Shown piece by piece: positions 50,369 to 57,851 of a stretch of DNA of 64,000 nucleotides. The stretch is taken from assembly GCA_947489315.1 (NCBI GenBank), contig CANLCX010000002.1, forward strand, positions 310,001 to 374,000. The letters are read 5' to 3'. The translations under genes and the position numbers were made by a program. The DNA comes from an uncultured Sphingomonadaceae bacterium (lineage in GTDB: Bacteria; Pseudomonadota; Alphaproteobacteria; Sphingomonadales; Sphingomonadaceae). The stretch's first letter is position 1, and each line of letters begins with the position of its first letter. The notes beneath the pieces were generated by a model. It searched no databases. It saw nothing but the letters and a program-made list of their open reading frames with translations, and had not been told where the DNA came from.

Positions 50369-51324
50369 GATTTCGACAAATGGACCGCCAATGGTGCCGA
50401 GAGCACCAGGCTGGACAGATGATATAATAAGAGCGGAATCAGAACAAAACCGGCGGCTTCTGGAGGAAATAATATCGCCGCCAGCGGCGCGCCAACCGCG
50501 ATGCTTTTTTGCGCTCCGCCAAATAGCAAGGCCTTGCGGTCATTTATCACAAAGCCTGCAAAACCGCCCAACAGCCAGGCGCCGCCAAAGGCAAAGATCA
50601 ACAGTCCGGCAATCGCCGCAGCAATGATCAGGAATTGGTCACCCGGCACTTGTTGCCATATGCCCGCCACCACCGCGCCGGAAAAAGCAACATAAACGGC
50701 CAAGCTAATCGCGATTTTGTCGGACCATCCCACTATGCCCTTATGCCGCGCCGCCCAAGGACGCGCCCAACTCTGGATCAGTTGACCGATCACAAACGGT
50801 AACAATAGCATCGTCATGATTTTCACAAAAGAAGCGCCGGTAATCACGATACCAACGGAGCTCGCCAGCAACGCGAAAAAGACCGGTGTAATAATTATGG
50901 ATGATAAATTGACGGTCGCCGCCGCGACAACGGACGCGCCTACATTGCCTTTGGCAATGGCGGTATAGCTCGCCGCCGATTGGATCGTGGACGGCAGGCA
51001 TCCGAGATATAAGAAGCCGACCGCAATCAAAGGCGCAATATACCCGTCCAGAACATGCGACAGAAGGAGCCCGGCCAAAACCATAGCACCGAAAACAAAT
51101 CCAAACACAGCCGATTGCAGGCGCCAATTGCGGAAGCCCGCAACCACCTCTTGCCGATCCAGCCGAATTCCGTGGAGTAGGAATATCCAGAAAATACCCG
51201 CTGTCACGCCGAATGCCGCAATAGGTTGAGCCGGCCCTTCTACTGGGAGTATAGTCGCCAGAAGGACACAACCCCCTAACAGCCAGATAAACTTATCGGC
51301 TAAAATCATTCTTATAGTTTGCAT
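50365..51324 (-). CDS. Bile acid:sodium symporter family transporter (SLC10A7-like)
   Basis: This membrane protein of 319 residues with about ten hydrophobic segments resembles the SBF-like/BASS branch typified by SLC10A7. Segments include AFGVTAGIFWIFLLHGIRL, FLYLGCLPSTIQSAASYTA and KGNVGASVVAAATVNLSSI, the second being the strongly conserved crossover helix. It may carry organic anions with sodium or protons, and the substrate is unknown. The open frame starts with a TTG at 51369. ATG 51324 follows GAAGG and begins before the first segment, so it is preferred, though the start is not certain. Confidence 0.85.
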   Translation of the reverse strand: MQTIRMILADKFIWLLGGCVLLATILPVEGPAQPIAAFGVTAGIFWIFLLHGIRLDRQEVVAGFRNWRLQSAVFGFVFGAMVLAGLLLSHVLDGYIAPLIAVGFLYLGCLPSTIQSAASYTAIAKGNVGASVVAAATVNLSSIIITPVFFALLASSVGIVITGASFVKIMTMLLLPFVIGQLIQSWARPWAARHKGIVGWSDKIAISLAVYVAFSGAVVAGIWQQVPGDQFLIIAAAIAGLLIFAFGGAWLLGGFAGFVINDRKALLFGGAQKSIAVGAPLAAILFPPEAAGFVLIPLLLYHLSSLVLSAPLAVHLSKS

Positions 51325-51470
51325 TGCGCCTTCGCCAATGCTCCACTGCAGCAGCCGACGCAAGTCCAAGAAACGGATATTTAGAGAGTGATCACAAGAA
51401 CATGCATCTCTCTGCTGATCTCAGTAGTTACCAACTGCAACCTTGAACCAGAGCGGACTGTAAACAATGT

Positions 51471-52361
51471 CTAAGACCTGATCCGATGCACAATCGCACG
51501 CATCAGATCTTTCAACAGCTGGGGCGATGCTTTGAATACGGTCCACGGGTCGCTTGCCAAAGCCTTGAGCAGCAGCCTGACATCAAAATAATACCAATCA
51601 GACAATATCCGATGGACAAGCGCTTTGGCGCGCAAGGTTTTATCATCGACATGATCCAATTCTCGCAGCAGCACTTTCGATACCAGTTGCCGGATATCTT
51701 TGCTCCGCTGATCGGTCAGGCTGCGGTCGTGCCGGCGATAAAGATAAAGGTCGCTATCCACGGGCACCATTTGAAATTGATGCGCGGCGCGCAGCCAATA
51801 GTCATAATCCTCCGCGCCAAAAAGCTGTTCATCATATCCGCCCAGCGCTTCGGTAACATGGCGGCGATAGAGAAAGGCGGCCCCGACCGGATTGCAGAAC
51901 CAGCGCTCCTCCATCGGCGGCGGCGCGACGTAACGCAGGATATTCTCAGCATCATCAATCACGCTATAACCCGCGTAGACGAGATCTGCCTCAGGCTTGG
52001 CCTCTAGTTCCGCCACCAGCTTTGTGATCATATTGGGCCGCAAGATATTGTCATCGCTAGTCCAACTGTGCAGCGCACCCCGCGCTTCCAAAAAGCCGCG
52101 ATTAAGCGTAGCGGGCAGTCCCATATTGCGTTCATTGGTCAGATGCCGGACCCTCGAGTCTTCCATCGCATGACGTCCAATGATCTCGCTGCTTTCGTCC
52201 GTGGACGCATCATCAATACAGATAAGTTCCCAATCGGAATATTGCTGCCGCAAAACCGAATGGATCGCGCTATCCAGATAGCGAGCGCCATTATAAACAG
52301 GCATCACGATAGTAACAACGGGACTAACCTGATTAACCGATGATGGATTCTCGATTTTCAT
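51471..52361 (-). CDS. Family 2 glycosyltransferase
   Basis: This 296-residue GT-A-type glycosyltransferase begins VVTIVMPVYNGARYLDSAIHS and has the nucleotide-binding CIDDASTDES with ELICID. A DD motif appears in SWTSDDNILRPNMI. Acceptor-side features include GYDEQLFGAEDYDYWLRA, typical of rhamnosyl or other polysaccharide transferases. It has no membrane segments. No other polysaccharide genes are nearby, so its product (cell-surface glycan) cannot be named. It lies between the BASS transporter and typA on the minus strand. Confidence 0.88.
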   Translation of the reverse strand: MKIENPSSVNQVSPVVTIVMPVYNGARYLDSAIHSVLRQQYSDWELICIDDASTDESSEIIGRHAMEDSRVRHLTNERNMGLPATLNRGFLEARGALHSWTSDDNILRPNMITKLVAELEAKPEADLVYAGYSVIDDAENILRYVAPPPMEERWFCNPVGAAFLYRRHVTEALGGYDEQLFGAEDYDYWLRAAHQFQMVPVDSDLYLYRRHDRSLTDQRSKDIRQLVSKVLLRELDHVDDKTLRAKALVHRILSDWYYFDVRLLLKALASDPWTVFKASPQLLKDLMRAIVHRIRS

Positions 52362-52568
52362 ATTCGATCTATATTATGGTCGACATAGGAGAGCATGAAT
52401 TTTAGACTATCTATTCCAAAAAACCCTATATTATTTTCATGTTACAGCGATAGACAATATCAAAGCGGGTTTCTGATGTTGCGGCGCAGCACAAAACAGG
52501 TTAAGGGCGCACCCAATATAAGGCGCGGCAGTGAAGCCCCCTTTCCTCTCTTTACGGCAGAATTTAAT

Positions 52569-54386
52569 ATGTCTCTTCGCAATATAGCTATCATCGCGCA
52601 CGTTGATCACGGCAAAACTACCCTTGTGGACCAGCTTTTCCGCCAGTCCGGAACTTTCCGCGACAATGAGCGTGTCGAAGAACGCGCGATGGACAGCAAT
52701 GATCTGGAGAAAGAACGCGGCATCACGATTCTCGCAAAATGTACGAGTGTTGAGTGGAAAGGCACGCGGATCAATATTGTTGATACCCCGGGCCATGCCG
52801 ACTTTGGTGGTGAAGTAGAACGCATCCTGTCGATGGTCGATGGCGTTATTTTGCTCGTCGACAGCGCAGAAGGCGCGATGCCACAGACAAAATTCGTGAC
52901 CGGCAAAGCCCTGGCGCTGGGCTTGAAGCCAATCGTAGTCGTCAACAAAATTGACCGTCCCGATGGCCGTGCAGAAGAAGTGCTCGACGAAGTGTTCGAC
53001 CTGTTCGTCAATCTCGACGCCAATGACGAACAGCTCGATTTCCCGTCGATGTTCGCCAGCGGCCGTAATGGCTATGCCGGCCCTACCCCGGACGTACGCG
53101 AAGGCGACCTGTCTCCCTTGTTCGACAAAATCATCGAACATGTACCTGAGCCAGATGTTGATCCGGATGCAGAATTCAAATTCCTCGTCACCCTGCTCGA
53201 CCGCGACAATTTCGTGGGCCGCATTTTGACTGGCAAAGTCGAGAGCGGCAAAATCGACATTAACATGCCGATCCATGCGATCGATATGGACGGCAAGGTC
53301 ATTGAAACCGGCCGTGCTACCAAGATTATGGCCTTTAATGGCTTGGAACGTGTCCCCGTCGAGAGCGCCAAGGCGGGCGATATTATCTCTCTTGCCGGCC
53401 TGACCGATGCAACGGTGTCCAACACCATTTGCGACATTTCCGTCACCGAACCAATTGCAGCACAGCCGATTGATCCACCGACATTGTCGATGCGCTTTGC
53501 CGTGAATGACAGTCCAGTTGCAGGCCGCGAAGGCGACAAAGTTACGAGCCGCGTCATTCGTGACCGTCTGGCGCGCGAAGCAGAATCGAATGTTGCCATC
53601 AAAGTGACCGAAAGCGAAGACCGCGACAGCTTTGAAGTTGCTGGTCGTGGTGAATTGCAGCTTGGCGTGCTCATCGAAACGATGCGCCGCGAAGGTTTTG
53701 AGCTTGGCATTTCCCGTCCACGTGTTCTCTATCGGGAAGAAGATGGCAAACGTCAGGAACCTTATGAAACGGTCGTTATCGATGTGGATGATGAATATGC
53801 CAGCACCGTCGTTTCCAAAATGCAGCGCCGTAAAGCCGAATTGACCGAACAACGCCCCTCTGGCGCCGGCAAGACCCGTCTGACCTTCTCCGCGCCTTCT
53901 CGCGGCCTGATCGGCTATCATGGCGAGTTTCTGTCGGACACACGCGGTACCGGCCTGATGAACCGCCTGTTCGAAAAATATGGCGAGTATAAAGGCGTTA
54001 TCGAAGGCCGCCCGGTTGGCGTGCTGGTATCAAACGGCACCGGCTCCACAGCGGCTTATGCGCTGAACATGCTCGAAGAACGTGGCATCATGTTCATTGG
54101 TGCGCAAACACCAGTTTACGAAGGCATGATCATTGGCGAAAATGCCAAGCCCGGCGACCTCGATGTCAATCCGATGAAGTCAAAAGCGCTTACCAACTTC
54201 CGTGTCTCGGGCAAGGAAGACGCGATCCGTTTGACCACACCAAAGGTCATGACTTTGGAACAGGCGATTGCCTATATCGACAATGATGAACTGGTCGAAG
54301 TGACGCCGAAAAACATCCGCCTGCGCAAGCGCTATCTCGATCCCAACGATCGCAAGAAAGCTTCACGGAAAGCGGAGGCAGCTTAA
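52569..54386 (+). CDS. typA: GTPase BipA/TypA (ribosome-associated)
   Basis: BipA is a translational GTPase of the EF-G family that aids ribosome assembly under stress. The 605-residue frame has G1 AHVDHGKTT near residue 10, DTPGHADF, G4 NKIDRP, and the family phrase [21 protein letters not shown]. Length is standard. ATG 52569 is chosen from the family start [15 protein letters not shown]. The frame runs to 52395, but the upstream part is unlike BipA. Its last 12 codons ([12 protein letters not shown]) reappear 1.7 kb downstream, and its stop overlaps the PQQ-type dehydrogenase gene by four bases. Confidence 0.96.
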
Positions 54387-55888
54387 AACCCGAAGGGTTC
54401 GACAGCAAATATTTCTCCGTCGGAATCGGCGATGACCAGCTCATTACTCTGATCAGTGCCAAATGCCACAATACCGTCGATACTGCCTACGTCGGGCTCG
54501 AAATCAGCGTTTAACAATTCGTAACTTGTTGAGGGGATTATTTCTCCGGACAACAGGTCAGCAAGCCGAACAGCCCATATATTGCCGTTTGAGAAATCCG
54601 CGAAGATATATTTCGATTGCAGGCTTTGAACTGAACCTTGATAAATCACGCCTCCGACAATTGAGCTTCCCTCCCGATCGCCATTGCCCCTTGCATATTC
54701 AGTTACTGGCATAATCAACGGACCTGCACTGCTACCCATAAATGGCGAAATGCCCTCAAAAAATGGCCAGCCAAAATTTTCACCACTACCGGTATGCAGC
54801 AGAAAGTTGATTTCTTCGGCAACCGAGCCTCCTCTGTCACCAAAATATACTCCGTCACCAAACAAAAAACCATTCTTGGGGTCCTGCATACCAAGTGCAT
54901 AAACAAACGGATCTCCGCCGCCAGCAGCGAATGGATTTCCCGCTGGGACAAGGAATAGAGCAGGCGCTGCACCAGCAAATGGATCTGGATTTGGCTGCAG
55001 TCGCAAAATTTTACCCAATTTTGAATTGGGATCTTGGGCTATATTGGGATTACCAGAATCGCCAACCATAACGTAGAGATTATTGTCGGGATCGAACCCA
55101 AGCCAACCTCCATAATTCGTGTCAGAATCATGTGGTATCTGGAGCTGTATCCCCGTACCTAATAAGCCTTCGGGGATCGCGCGGTTAATTTTCCGGATCG
55201 TGATGTCACTTCCTGCGGTGGCGAATATCCCCGTCCTTGCCGCAGTGACAAATGCCCAGTAACTATTATTGGAAGAGAAAGACGGATCAACCGCTAATCC
55301 CAGAAGCCCGCCTTCACCAGCTGTGTTCACGTTCAGAATAGTGCGATCAAGAATACGCGTCCCATCAATTGTATCAAGTTCATAAATGTTCCCGTTGCGC
55401 TGTGCCACAAACACCTTTGCCTGACTCGGTATAGTAGCAATGGCCGTAACATCGTTCATTCCTGTCGTCAGCCGTCGGACACCGATACCTTCCCGATCAT
55501 TGTCGACTGTAATGGTTAAATCGATTGTATCACTGGCACTTCCGTCGCTAACGCGGACCGCCAGATGATATACATTATCTTGATCAGCATCTGTTGGAAG
55601 TTCAAAATTTGGCTGTGACGCGAAACTAAGGGCTCCGGCTGCAGAAATCGAGAAATCGTCCGCATCATCACCGCCTGAGATCGAAAAGCTTAACCCATCA
55701 CCATCAGCATCCGTCGCTTGTACGGTCAAAACTGTCGTCTCGTTTTCCGTTACATTGCCCGTTGGACCTGTTGTGATTTGCGGGGCTGAATTGACACTGG
55801 GAGGCAGCACCACAGGCGAAGAAGAATCGCCACCACCACCACAAGCTGCCATTGAAAATAGTATCCCAACGGAAATCAATCGACGCAT
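54383..55888 (-). CDS. PQQ-type sugar (glucose/sorbosone) dehydrogenase lipoprotein with cadherin-like domain
   Basis: The 501-residue protein starts with a lipoprotein signal (MRRLISVGILFSMAAC, lipid on the Cys of MAAC) and a Gly/Ser/Pro linker. A cadherin-like domain (about residues 35-130, with VTENETTVLTVQATDADGDGL) follows. The GSDH beta-propeller domain has GEGGLLGLAVDPSFSSNNS, SKLGKILRLQPNP and GENFGWPFFEG, and would bind PQQ. It should oxidise sugars or related alcohols in the periplasm, if PQQ is supplied. Hand counts of two lines gave 42% and 48% GC, against 57% in typA. The gene faces typA, overlapping it by four bases. Confidence 0.88.
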   Translation of the reverse strand: MRRLISVGILFSMAACGGGGDSSSPVVLPPSVNSAPQITTGPTGNVTENETTVLTVQATDADGDGLSFSISGGDDADDFSISAAGALSFASQPNFELPTDADQDNVYHLAVRVSDGSASDTIDLTITVDNDREGIGVRRLTTGMNDVTAIATIPSQAKVFVAQRNGNIYELDTIDGTRILDRTILNVNTAGEGGLLGLAVDPSFSSNNSYWAFVTAARTGIFATAGSDITIRKINRAIPEGLLGTGIQLQIPHDSDTNYGGWLGFDPDNNLYVMVGDSGNPNIAQDPNSKLGKILRLQPNPDPFAGAAPALFLVPAGNPFAAGGGDPFVYALGMQDPKNGFLFGDGVYFGDRGGSVAEEINFLLHTGSGENFGWPFFEGISPFMGSSAGPLIMPVTEYARGNGDREGSSIVGGVIYQGSVQSLQSKYIFADFSNGNIWAVRLADLLSGEIIPSTSYELLNADFEPDVGSIDGIVAFGTDQSNELVIADSDGEIFAVEPFGF

Positions 55889-56070
55889 ATATAGCCCCCC
55901 CCAATTCGAAACAATATACAGCTATCTGTAAAATATAGGAGTTACAAGACCGAGCCTGTATTCAATATAGTTATTTATTGAAATAGCTCTATTATGTTAA
56001 AAATATCGATGGTACCGCCCTTGATATAAAGGAACTAATGAACCTGTGCGAAGCACAAAAACCGGAAATC

Positions 56071-56112
56071 GACGATCGCAAGAAAGCGTCACGCAAGGCT
56101 GAAGCCGCCTAA
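56071..56112 (+). pseudogene. Remnant of the typA 3' end (last 13 codons), detached copy
   Basis: Codons 56071-56109 read [13 protein letters not shown] and are followed by TAA. The typA terminus ends [13 protein letters not shown] then TAA. I counted 34 of 42 bases identical. All differences from the second codon on are at third positions, and only the first codon changes the residue. An ATG at 56038 with AAGGA upstream opens a 24-codon ORF in the same frame, but I believe this to be a displaced gene end rather than a real gene. The surrounding 55.9-56.03 kb stretch is AT-rich (one 60-base line 32% GC). Confidence 0.75.
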
Positions 56113-56141
56113 ATTCGACTATAGTTGCATCATGGGCTGAG

Positions 56142-57131
56142 ATGGATCATCATCAGCGCATGACAGCAATTTCAAAAAATCTGCTGCGCTGGAGCGTGGC
56201 TGCGGCCGCCTCGGCGCTGCTAATCTCGTGCGCTGAGCCCATCACCAACGATGACATGGTTGCAGATGACCCTGCGGCATGCCGCGACAATGCCCTGGCT
56301 GTACAAGTTTTGGGCTCCGGCGGCCCCATTGCCGACGATCATCGCGGCGGCGCTGGCAATATTATCTGGGTCGATGGAAAGGCCCGCTTAATGGTGGATG
56401 CAGGTCCGGGCAGCTTCATTCGCTATGGTGAAGCCGGCGTGGATTTCAAAGATCATGACGCAATCCTTCTGACCCATTTCCACGGAGATCATGTCGGCGG
56501 TCTTCCAAGCATATTGAATAGTGGTAGCTTTGCGAAGCGCACTGAACCTTTGTTAATCGCAGGACCGGAGGGGTCGGCCAGCTTTCCATCAACCAGTGAA
56601 TTTTTGGGCGCATTAGTCGGCAAAGACGGTGCGCTTCGCTATCTGAGTTCCTATCTTGATGACAATCCTGCTCTGCCCAAGTTCACTATTCGTGATATCG
56701 TTACCAGCGGCGATGACATGCAGCCGGTGCTTCGGAAGGATGGCTTGAATGTGGACGCCGTTGCGGTCAAGCATCTCGAAGTTCCCGCTCTTTCTTATGT
56801 TGTCCGAATTAAAGGAAAGCGGCTTTTATTTTCCGGTGACCAGAGTTTTCTGAGCGAAACATTTGAAAAAGTAACCGGCAATGGCCAACCCGATATCATG
56901 ATCATGCATAACGCCATATCCATGGCCGACGGGCAACCACGTGGCCTTCACCGGGATGGGGAGTCCATTGGCGAGGCTGCTCAACAAGCAGGTGCCAAAA
57001 AACTCGTCTTGTCCCACCATATGCAACGCGCCCTCAACGATCGCCAAGCGATCATGGACGCGATCCGACAGAGCTATAAAGGGCCAGTGGAATTTGCTGA
57101 TGATCTATCCTGCTTCGCTGTCATCGAATAG
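56142..57131 (+). CDS. Metallo-beta-lactamase-fold hydrolase, probable lipoprotein
   Basis: This 329-residue exported metallohydrolase has a lipoprotein-type signal (ASALLISC, lipid on C30). The metal motif HxHxDH is at residues 112-117 (LLTHFHGDHVGG). A further His lies near the C-terminus (LVLSHHMQRA), and FSGDQSF may supply the bridging Asp. It is closest to the arylsulfatase/ribonuclease Z-like branch (VLGSGGP, DAGPGSFIRYG). The substrate is not predictable. ATG 56142 and ATG 56160 are both possible, and the signal peptide is kept in either case. The gene follows the detached typA remnant. Confidence 0.85.
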   Translation: MDHHQRMTAISKNLLRWSVAAAASALLISCAEPITNDDMVADDPAACRDNALAVQVLGSGGPIADDHRGGAGNIIWVDGKARLMVDAGPGSFIRYGEAGVDFKDHDAILLTHFHGDHVGGLPSILNSGSFAKRTEPLLIAGPEGSASFPSTSEFLGALVGKDGALRYLSSYLDDNPALPKFTIRDIVTSGDDMQPVLRKDGLNVDAVAVKHLEVPALSYVVRIKGKRLLFSGDQSFLSETFEKVTGNGQPDIMIMHNAISMADGQPRGLHRDGESIGEAAQQAGAKKLVLSHHMQRALNDRQAIMDAIRQSYKGPVEFADDLSCFAVIE

Positions 57132-57165: not shown

Positions 57166-57425
57166 TATAGAAATGGGTTATTGGAGTAGCGATATTATAA
57201 AATGTTCTAAAACAACTAAATGCGGCCACCTCTTAACCTCGGAACTGCGATAATATTTTAGACGATTCTGTGTAGAAGCTGTATAATCTTGCACAGTGGT
57301 GGTAAGTGCTGGATTGAGAACGGAAACGAACTTTACCCTAATGAAATAGACGCTTGATTTTCATTTTCGGCTGGCTAGGCTCAGCGCACAAGAAATAATA
57401 AAAGATAATGATGAGGGGAAGACCG

Positions 57426-57851
57426 ATGGAATGGATGTTGATGCCGCTGAAACGCTATGCGGATTTTAATGGAAGATCGCGGCGCAAAGAATATTGGATG
57501 TTTTTCCTTTTCCAAATGATTGTTGTTTTTGGGATTGTGATCATTGGCGGCATTTTAGGTGCTTTTTCACCCGACGCGTCGGGTGAAATGTCTTTCGGCG
57601 GAAGCCTGATGGCTGGACTGTTTGGGATATACGCACTGGCAATGTTCATCCCGACGATAGCTGTCCAAGTCCGGCGTCTTCACGATACAGAAAGAAGCGG
57701 CTGGTGGGTGTTACTAGGTATCGTTCCCATCGTAAACTATATTGGTTTCATCGTTTTGCTTGTCTTCTATTGCCTAGATGGAACCAAGGGCAAGAACCGC
57801 TTCGGTGACGATCCGAAAATGAGCGACAATGTCGGTGATGTATTCAGTTAA
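57426..57851 (+). CDS. DUF805 membrane protein
   Basis: The 141-residue protein opens with PLKRYADFNGRSRRKEYWMFFLF, which is the signature of DUF805. Three to four hydrophobic segments follow, and RRLHDTERSGWWVLL sits between the last ones. The end is LDGTKGKNRFGDDPK. DUF805 proteins are widespread inner-membrane proteins of unknown role. A start at 57408 is in frame, but AGGGGAAG is spaced for ATG 57426. A strong terminator lies 49 bp after the stop. Confidence 0.9.
   Translation: MEWMLMPLKRYADFNGRSRRKEYWMFFLFQMIVVFGIVIIGGILGAFSPDASGEMSFGGSLMAGLFGIYALAMFIPTIAVQVRRLHDTERSGWWVLLGIVPIVNYIGFIVLLVFYCLDGTKGKNRFGDDPKMSDNVGDVFS

What the first reader, a model, noticed from the sequence alone, without database searches (positions are those of the whole stretch)
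54345..56112. The typA C-terminus is repeated 1.7 kb downstream with synonymous changes, bracketing a PQQ-type dehydrogenase gene
typA ends with codons for [17 protein letters not shown] (54345-54386). At 56071-56112 the same terminus recurs as [17 protein letters not shown]. I count 34 of 42 bases identical. Every change after the first codon is at a third position, so the second copy was under protein-level selection rather than being a recent duplicate. The DNA between the copies carries the AT-rich dehydrogenase gene (54383-55888) on the opposite strand, overlapping the typA stop by 4 bp, and very AT-rich spacer DNA (one line 32% GC). A natural reading is that a foreign segment (a typA 3' end plus dehydrogenase) entered by homologous exchange in typA and the native typA tail was left stranded. 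An alternative is an element that uses the typA 3' end as an attachment site and restores it.
Basis: seen in the sequence. Interest (0 to 1): 0.85.

Follow-up and report, generated by a model that had tools for sequence, protein, structure and literature searches.

The report
Stranded gene tail marking imported DNA
A short leftover copy of the end of the typA gene marks where this bacterium took in a relative's typA together with a new dehydrogenase gene; similar leftovers lie after typA in four other genomes examined from its family, so it is a clear scar of a known way in which bacteria gain genes without a mobile element.

Summary
The repeat is real: 34 of 42 bases match, and seven of the eight changes are synonymous third-position changes. 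Of 69 window ORFs of at least 150 aa, only typA has such a copy downstream. In 8 of 31 genus typA loci examined the typA stop is followed after 28-29 nt by the metallo-hydrolase gene. In the window the second copy holds that place, so it is the native typA end. Site by site the window resembles relative G011 left of about 50.85 kb, G018 from there to the typA stop, and G011 again in the hydrolase gene. The attachment-site alternative is disfavoured: no tyrosine integrase near typA, differing repeat lengths, and far more than the tail exchanged. This dehydrogenase is in 8 of 32 genus genomes, always beside typA. Stranded typA tails occur in 5 of 136 family loci examined (four of the five known before the wider survey) against 0 of 520 control ORFs. 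It works like homology-facilitated illegitimate recombination. Donor, direction and right-hand joint mechanism are inferred.

The parts
50850..51050 (.). left switch point of the imported tract (approximate): similarity changes from G011-like to G018-like
   Evidence: informative-site scan
51050..54386 (.). G018-like tract: part of the 50365-51369 gene, the glycosyltransferase-like gene 51471-52361 (name by eye, not searched) and all of typA
   Evidence: 50950-54386: 417 G018-type, 83 G011-type, 34 neither
52569..54386 (+). typA/bipA, intact, with the incoming 3' end
   Evidence: typA tree
54345..54386 (+). first copy of the typA tail (taken as the incoming allele)
54383..55888 (-). cargo: lipoprotein-like protein with cadherin-like and GSDH (glucose/sorbosone dehydrogenase) domains; its stop overlaps the typA stop by 4 bp
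55889..56071 (.). AT-rich spacer taken to have come with the dehydrogenase; its right end is the non-homologous joint
56072..56112 (+). stranded last 41 nt of the native typA, stop codon included
56038..56112 (+). 24-codon open frame (ATG with AAGGA upstream) that runs in frame into the stranded tail; probably accidental
   Evidence: read
56113..56141 (.). native 29-nt leader between the old typA stop and the next gene, as in G011
56142..57131 (+). metallo-beta-lactamase-fold hydrolase gene that follows typA directly in eight relatives; 91% identical to G011

Best explanation
A G011-like ancestor, with typA directly followed by the hydrolase gene, took up a chromosome fragment (in one exchange, or two) of a relative whose typA was followed by the dehydrogenase gene. 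One end recombined by homology about 3.5 kb before the typA stop. The cell kept a complete typA (the incoming one), gained the dehydrogenase, and was left with an orphan 41-nt piece of its old typA in front of the hydrolase gene. Shown: the repeat, the empty site, the mosaic, the tree conflict, the typA linkage of the dehydrogenase, parallel cases. Inferred: the donor, the direction of transfer, the number of events and the enzymology of the right joint.
For: Empty site: in 8 of 31 genus typA loci examined (G011, G014, G018, G019, G020, G023, G026, G031) 28-29 nt separate the typA stop from the hydrolase gene; the window's second tail, leader and hydrolase start align to the G011 empty site. 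Mosaic: sites where G018 and G011 differ go 44:224 (G018-type:G011-type) over 49.0-50.8 kb, 423:87 over 50.8-54.4 kb, 43:203 over 56.05-56.95 kb, 6:72 over 58.0-58.5 kb. Trees: two genes about 4 kb downstream put G000 with G011 (100/97) and reject G000+G018 (p 2.8e-6); typA puts G000 with G018 (100/99) and rejects G000+G011 (p 0.005). Cargo linkage: 8 of 32 genus genomes hold this dehydrogenase (51-100% identity), all 8 directly 3' of typA and convergent. typA groups carriers G010, G016, G025, G015 with G005, which lacks it (88/94); the downstream genes reject that group (p about 1e-67) and so does rpoB (p 8e-5). Parallels: G010 and G025 carry decayed tails followed by the terminator that follows typA directly in relatives. 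In G288 the first tail is nearest G196, which has the transporter after typA (52 of 60), and the stranded tail nearest G323, which has the dehydrogenase after typA (55 of 60).
Against: G018 itself lacks the dehydrogenase, so the donor is unsampled. Two 150-bp bins inside typA (52750, 53800) lean to G011, and 57.25-58.0 kb is mixed (53:56). The 41-nt stranded tail does not itself decide: 3 G018-type, 3 G011-type, 1 neither. rpoB joins G000 with G027, another carrier (83/89), and does not reject G000+G018 (p 0.07); it also groups G025 with G015 and G005, as typA does. Carriers are not significantly clustered on the typA tree (6 changes; 88 of 500 shuffles as low). The clades were named after seeing the trees. 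In G288 the typA sites are a patchwork without a clean breakpoint. The usual loss of recipient DNA is not seen, and no donor right flank is known, so microhomology cannot be tested.
Confidence: 0.82

Rival explanations
1. A small mobile element uses the typA 3' end as attachment site: integration restores typA with the element's own tail and pushes the native tail to the far end, as islands do at tRNA genes.
For: Topology fits; typA has such scars in three genera with different cargo; no repeat is longer than about 83 nt.
Against: The G018-like tract reaches about 3.5 kb upstream of the repeat, whereas integration would alter only the tail. Repeat left edges differ: -41, -66, -78, -60 to -63, -83. 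In the 8 genomes scanned for tyrosine recombinases (PF00589; serine recombinases were not searched) none lies near typA, the nearest on a typA contig being about 88 kb away, in G000. No typA tail was found in 50,697 phage records at E up to 1; the 8 plasmid records found are 1.5-4.6 Mb replicons, one annotated as carrying typA.
Confidence: 0.08
2. Variant of the best explanation: two separate exchanges, an older typA/glycosyltransferase exchange with a G018-like lineage and an independent dehydrogenase gain from another lineage that stranded the tail.
For: G018 lacks the dehydrogenase; identity to G018 varies from 89 to 100% along the tract; rpoB joins G000 with the carrier G027, while the dehydrogenase tree joins G027 with G030.
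Against: Needs one more event; the right edge of the G018-like tract coincides with the insert.
Confidence: 0.3
3. Tandem duplication of the typA end followed by insertion of the dehydrogenase between the copies.
For: Would also give two tails.
Against: Seven changes, all synonymous, are not expected in a 13-codon orphan without function; the tails of G010 and G025 have decayed; the mosaic is unexplained.
Confidence: 0.02
4. The typA-dehydrogenase linkage is ancestral in the genus and relatives lost the gene.
For: The same convergent linkage exists in Parasphingopyxis; losses may explain some absences.
Against: Does not explain a typA tail beyond the dehydrogenase in G000, or tail plus terminator in G010 and G025.
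Confidence: 0.05

Closest known systems
Homology-facilitated illegitimate recombination (HFIR; PMC3240628, passages read)
   Different: There a deletion of recipient DNA is generally observed; here 41 nt are duplicated instead, and the event is an evolutionary record, not an experiment.
Displacement of T6SS effectors with retained orphan immunity genes in Vibrio cholerae (PMC5361080, passages read)
   Same: An upstream conserved stretch anchors the exchange and old gene parts are pushed downstream; the authors propose a mechanism akin to HFIR.
   Different: There whole immunity genes are kept, perhaps by selection; here the anchor is a translation GTPase gene and only its end remains.
Gene-turnover hotspots without mobile elements, exchanged through flanking core genes (PMC5635113, passages read)
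   Same: Variable genes beside a core gene, no recognisable mobile element, recombination in the core gene.
   Different: That model is double homologous recombination at both flanking genes; the stranded tail indicates that here the right side was not homologous.
Minimal mobile elements of Neisseria (term in 10 papers listed; concept recalled, no paper read)
   Same: Different genes between fixed flanking genes, exchanged by transformation (recalled).
   Different: A leftover of the flanking gene is not part of that definition as recalled.
Genomic islands integrating at the 3' end of trmE (PMC8409611, start of abstract in the listing)
   Same: Insert at the 3' end of a protein gene.
   Different: No tyrosine integrase near typA, differing repeat edges, and the exchange extends kilobases upstream.

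Membership tests
HFIR product | homologous recombination on one side of the insert | tested here: met
   G018-like tract from about 50.9 kb through typA; typA/downstream tree conflict
HFIR product | non-homologous joint on the other side | tested here: inconclusive
   typA homology does not extend left of -41 (shuffle p 1.0) and the spacer has no strong match in the other 31 genus genomes (best E 0.015), but the donor's right flank is unknown
HFIR product | 3-10 bp microhomology at the joint (found in most cases) | not testable with these tools
   donor right flank unknown
HFIR product | deletion of recipient DNA of similar size (generally observed) | tested here: not met
   native tail, leader and hydrolase all present; so the claim is 'works like HFIR', not membership
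integrase-driven island at a gene 3' end | integrase in or near the insert | tested here: not met
   tyrosine recombinases only; serine recombinases not searched
integrase-driven island at a gene 3' end | fixed core so that repeats share one edge | tested here: not met
   edges -41 to -83; decay may blur some
integrase-driven island at a gene 3' end | only the tail of the target gene is exchanged | tested here: not met
   window only; in G288 inconclusive
core-gene-flanked hotspot without mobile elements | variable gene content beside a core gene in relatives | tested here: met
   spacing and genes between typA and the next shared gene vary across 31 loci
core-gene-flanked hotspot without mobile elements | recombination in the flanking core gene | tested here: met

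The most novel reading that the evidence does not exclude
The typA 3' end is a preferred landing site for one-gene or two-gene cargo in Sphingomonadaceae: an unknown process, perhaps with helper proteins acting in trans, places non-homologous ends just inside the last 40-85 nt of typA while upstream typA is exchanged by homology, so that typA is kept working each time.
Probability: 0.1. Interest if true: 0.7.

Novelty: new member of a known kind. Interest (0 to 1): 0.45.

Why it matters
In the papers seen here, one-sided recombination is known from transformation and conjugation experiments and is inferred at a competition-toxin locus. This case leaves a readable scar beside a translation GTPase gene: an orphan gene end that tells which side is native, where the joint is and how far the exchange ran. 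Scanning genomes for stranded gene tails could measure how often bacteria gain genes this way without mobile elements.

Tried and rejected
Considered that the stranded tail extends to -67 in G000 (a gapped alignment suggested so): rejected, extension no better than shuffles. Considered that the first 11 codons of the 24-codon frame are the start of a donor gene: a DNA search of the spacer in 32 genus genomes gave no support. Looked for longer typA remnants in 136 loci, about 100 of them with only about 1 kb of typA in hand: none over about 83 nt; some 28 other matches of 15-49 nt at E 1e-4 to 0.005 on both strands were taken as chance. The lack of long repeats may reflect their loss by recombination, so clustering near the end of typA proves little. 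G260 (margin 5) and lower were not counted as stranded tails. Six loci have under 5.9 kb downstream (G001, G008, G017, G379, G419, G276), and G008 was too short to score. In G361 the native side could not be told. The dehydrogenase tree has a long branch (G016) and a weak root. Papers: searches were the searches that ran; no listed title or abstract start names typA as an insertion site; PMC5361080, PMC3240628 and PMC5635113 were read in passages only. The controls contain ORFs that may not be genes, and control ORFs had at least 2 kb downstream, fewer than 6 kb in many.

Full report
What is there. The last 42 bases of typA (54345-54386) recur at 56071-56112 with 34 identical bases; the eight differences are one in the first codon and seven synonymous third positions. 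The gap-free core is 41 nt (56072-56112), score 27 against at most 12 for 30 shuffles. Among 69 window ORFs of at least 150 aa, typA alone has such a copy within 5 kb (margin 14 over shuffles; next best 2). Between the copies lie the minus-strand gene 54383-55888, a lipoprotein-like GSDH dehydrogenase with a cadherin-like domain, and an AT-rich spacer.

Which copy is native. The window lies in G000, one of 32 held genomes of its genus. I examined 31 typA loci of the genus, G000 included; the typA of the 32nd, G002, is cut off at a contig edge. In eight (G011, G014, G018, G019, G020, G023, G026, G031) 28-29 nt separate the typA stop from the metallo-hydrolase gene; in the window 29 nt separate that gene from the second tail. 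The window's second tail with its flank aligns to the G011 empty site. So the second tail is the native end of typA.

What came in. Bases where G018 and G011 differ follow G011 from 49.0 to 50.8 kb (44 G018-type, 224 G011-type), G018 from 50.8 to 54.4 kb (423 and 87), and G011 again from 56.05 to 56.95 kb (43 and 203) and from 58.0 to 58.5 kb (6 and 72) (percent identities). The exchange thus covers the neighbouring glycosyltransferase-like gene and all of typA and ends at the insert. Not everything is clean: bins at 52750 and 53800 inside typA lean to G011, 57.25-58.0 kb is mixed (53 and 56), and the 41-nt tail itself is undecided (3 and 3). Trees agree in part: two proteins encoded about 4 kb downstream (SDR and enoyl-CoA hydratase-like, named by eye) join G000 with G011 and reject G000+G018 (p 2.8e-6); typA DNA joins G000 with G018 and rejects G000+G011 (p 0.005). 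rpoB joins G000 with G027 (83/89) inside a group with G011 and G018, and does not reject G000+G018 (p 0.07). These groups were named after the trees were seen. Direction of transfer is inferred from both outer flanks being G011-like.

The cargo is linked to typA. A relative of the dehydrogenase with 51-100% identity is held by 8 of 32 genus genomes, and in all 8 it lies directly after typA in convergent orientation. The label 'carrier' needs 8 changes on the tree of the downstream genes (500 of 500 shuffles as low), 7 on rpoB (277 of 500) and 6 on typA (88 of 500), so clustering on typA is suggestive only. typA groups G010, G016, G025, G015 and G005 (four carriers; 88/94), a group that the downstream genes and rpoB reject (p about 1e-67 and 8e-5), although rpoB does keep G025, G015 and G005 together. 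The same convergent pair is found in L134 (Parasphingopyxis marina, the same sequence as G248) and G323. Of the 57 loci (L130-L134) show typA within the stretch held (up to 5 kb of flank), and of the 29 loci from L187 to L215, 5 do (1.5 kb of flank), one of them, G182, with the dehydrogenase on the typA strand.

Parallel scars. In 136 typA loci (31 of the genus and 5 others, 100 more) I compared each typA end with up to 6 kb downstream. Five have a second tail with a margin of at least 11 over 20 codon shuffles: G361 (34), G025 (17), G288 (15), G010 (14), G000 (11); the next is 5. The sample is not random: G000 is the case itself, G010 and G025 were seen, G288 before its genus was fetched; only G361 was new in the survey of 100. 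In G010 and G025 the tail has decayed and is followed by the hairpin terminator that follows typA directly in relatives. G288 has typA, a PHO4 phosphate transporter gene, a tail, then the dehydrogenase; its first tail is nearest G196 (52 of 60; transporter after typA) and its stranded tail nearest G323 (55 of 60; dehydrogenase after typA), though its upstream typA is a patchwork. G361 carries a ParD-ParE pair between the tails. If G010 and G025 share one event, these are four events in three genera. Of 520 control ORFs in the same loci none reached margin 11 (best 6).

How it works. A homologous crossover upstream plus a non-homologous joint downstream explains the window without a mobile element. 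The joint differs from case to case: repeat edges at -41 (G000), -66 (G010), -78 (G025), -60 to -63 (G288), -83 (G361). In the eight genomes scanned no tyrosine recombinase gene lies beside typA; serine recombinases were not searched. No typA tail was found in phages, and the plasmid hits are 1.5-4.6 Mb replicons, one annotated as carrying typA. Site-specific integration would not replace kilobases upstream. No repeat longer than about 83 nt was seen, but long repeats are expected to be lost again by recombination, so this clustering does not show a preferred site.

Comparison with what is known. [quoted passage not shown] An HFIR-like process is proposed for orphan immunity genes in Vibrio (PMC5361080). 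Hotspots without mobile elements next to recombining core genes are described in PMC5635113. The window case works like these; it lacks the deletion, and the microhomology cannot be tested.

Verdict. It is a clean new example of a known kind, made more interesting by its recurrence at typA.

Noticed in passing
window 54383-54386; L228 983-986: The stop codons of the dehydrogenase (G000, G027, G030) and of the PHO4 transporter (G288) overlap the typA stop by 4 bp, so a convergent neighbour borrows its stop from the typA end.
   Followed up: partly
window 56038-56112: A 24-codon open frame with an AAGGA-like ribosome site runs in frame into the stranded typA tail just before the hydrolase gene.
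   Followed up: partly
L079 / L106 (G025): The dehydrogenase gene of this metagenome-derived genome holds an internal TGA: pseudogene or assembly error.
   Followed up: no
L064 (G018) and L082 (G006), downstream of typA: The DUF805-like gene of window 57408-57851 (named by eye) has two matches in tandem in G018 and three in G006.
   Followed up: no
G286 C3:3552087 and C3:3649886: Two typA matches of equal score in one genome, about 98 kb apart on opposite strands; the genome is listed with 5% contamination.
   Followed up: no
window 51501-52000: This stretch is about 100% identical to G018, while the flanks outside the tract are mostly 65-86% identical to it: a sign of a very recent exchange.
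   Followed up: partly
L241 (G361), about 135-664 nt after the typA stop: A ParD-ParE toxin-antitoxin pair sits between typA and a stranded typA tail, with the tail match starting only a few bases after the parE stop.
   Followed up: partly
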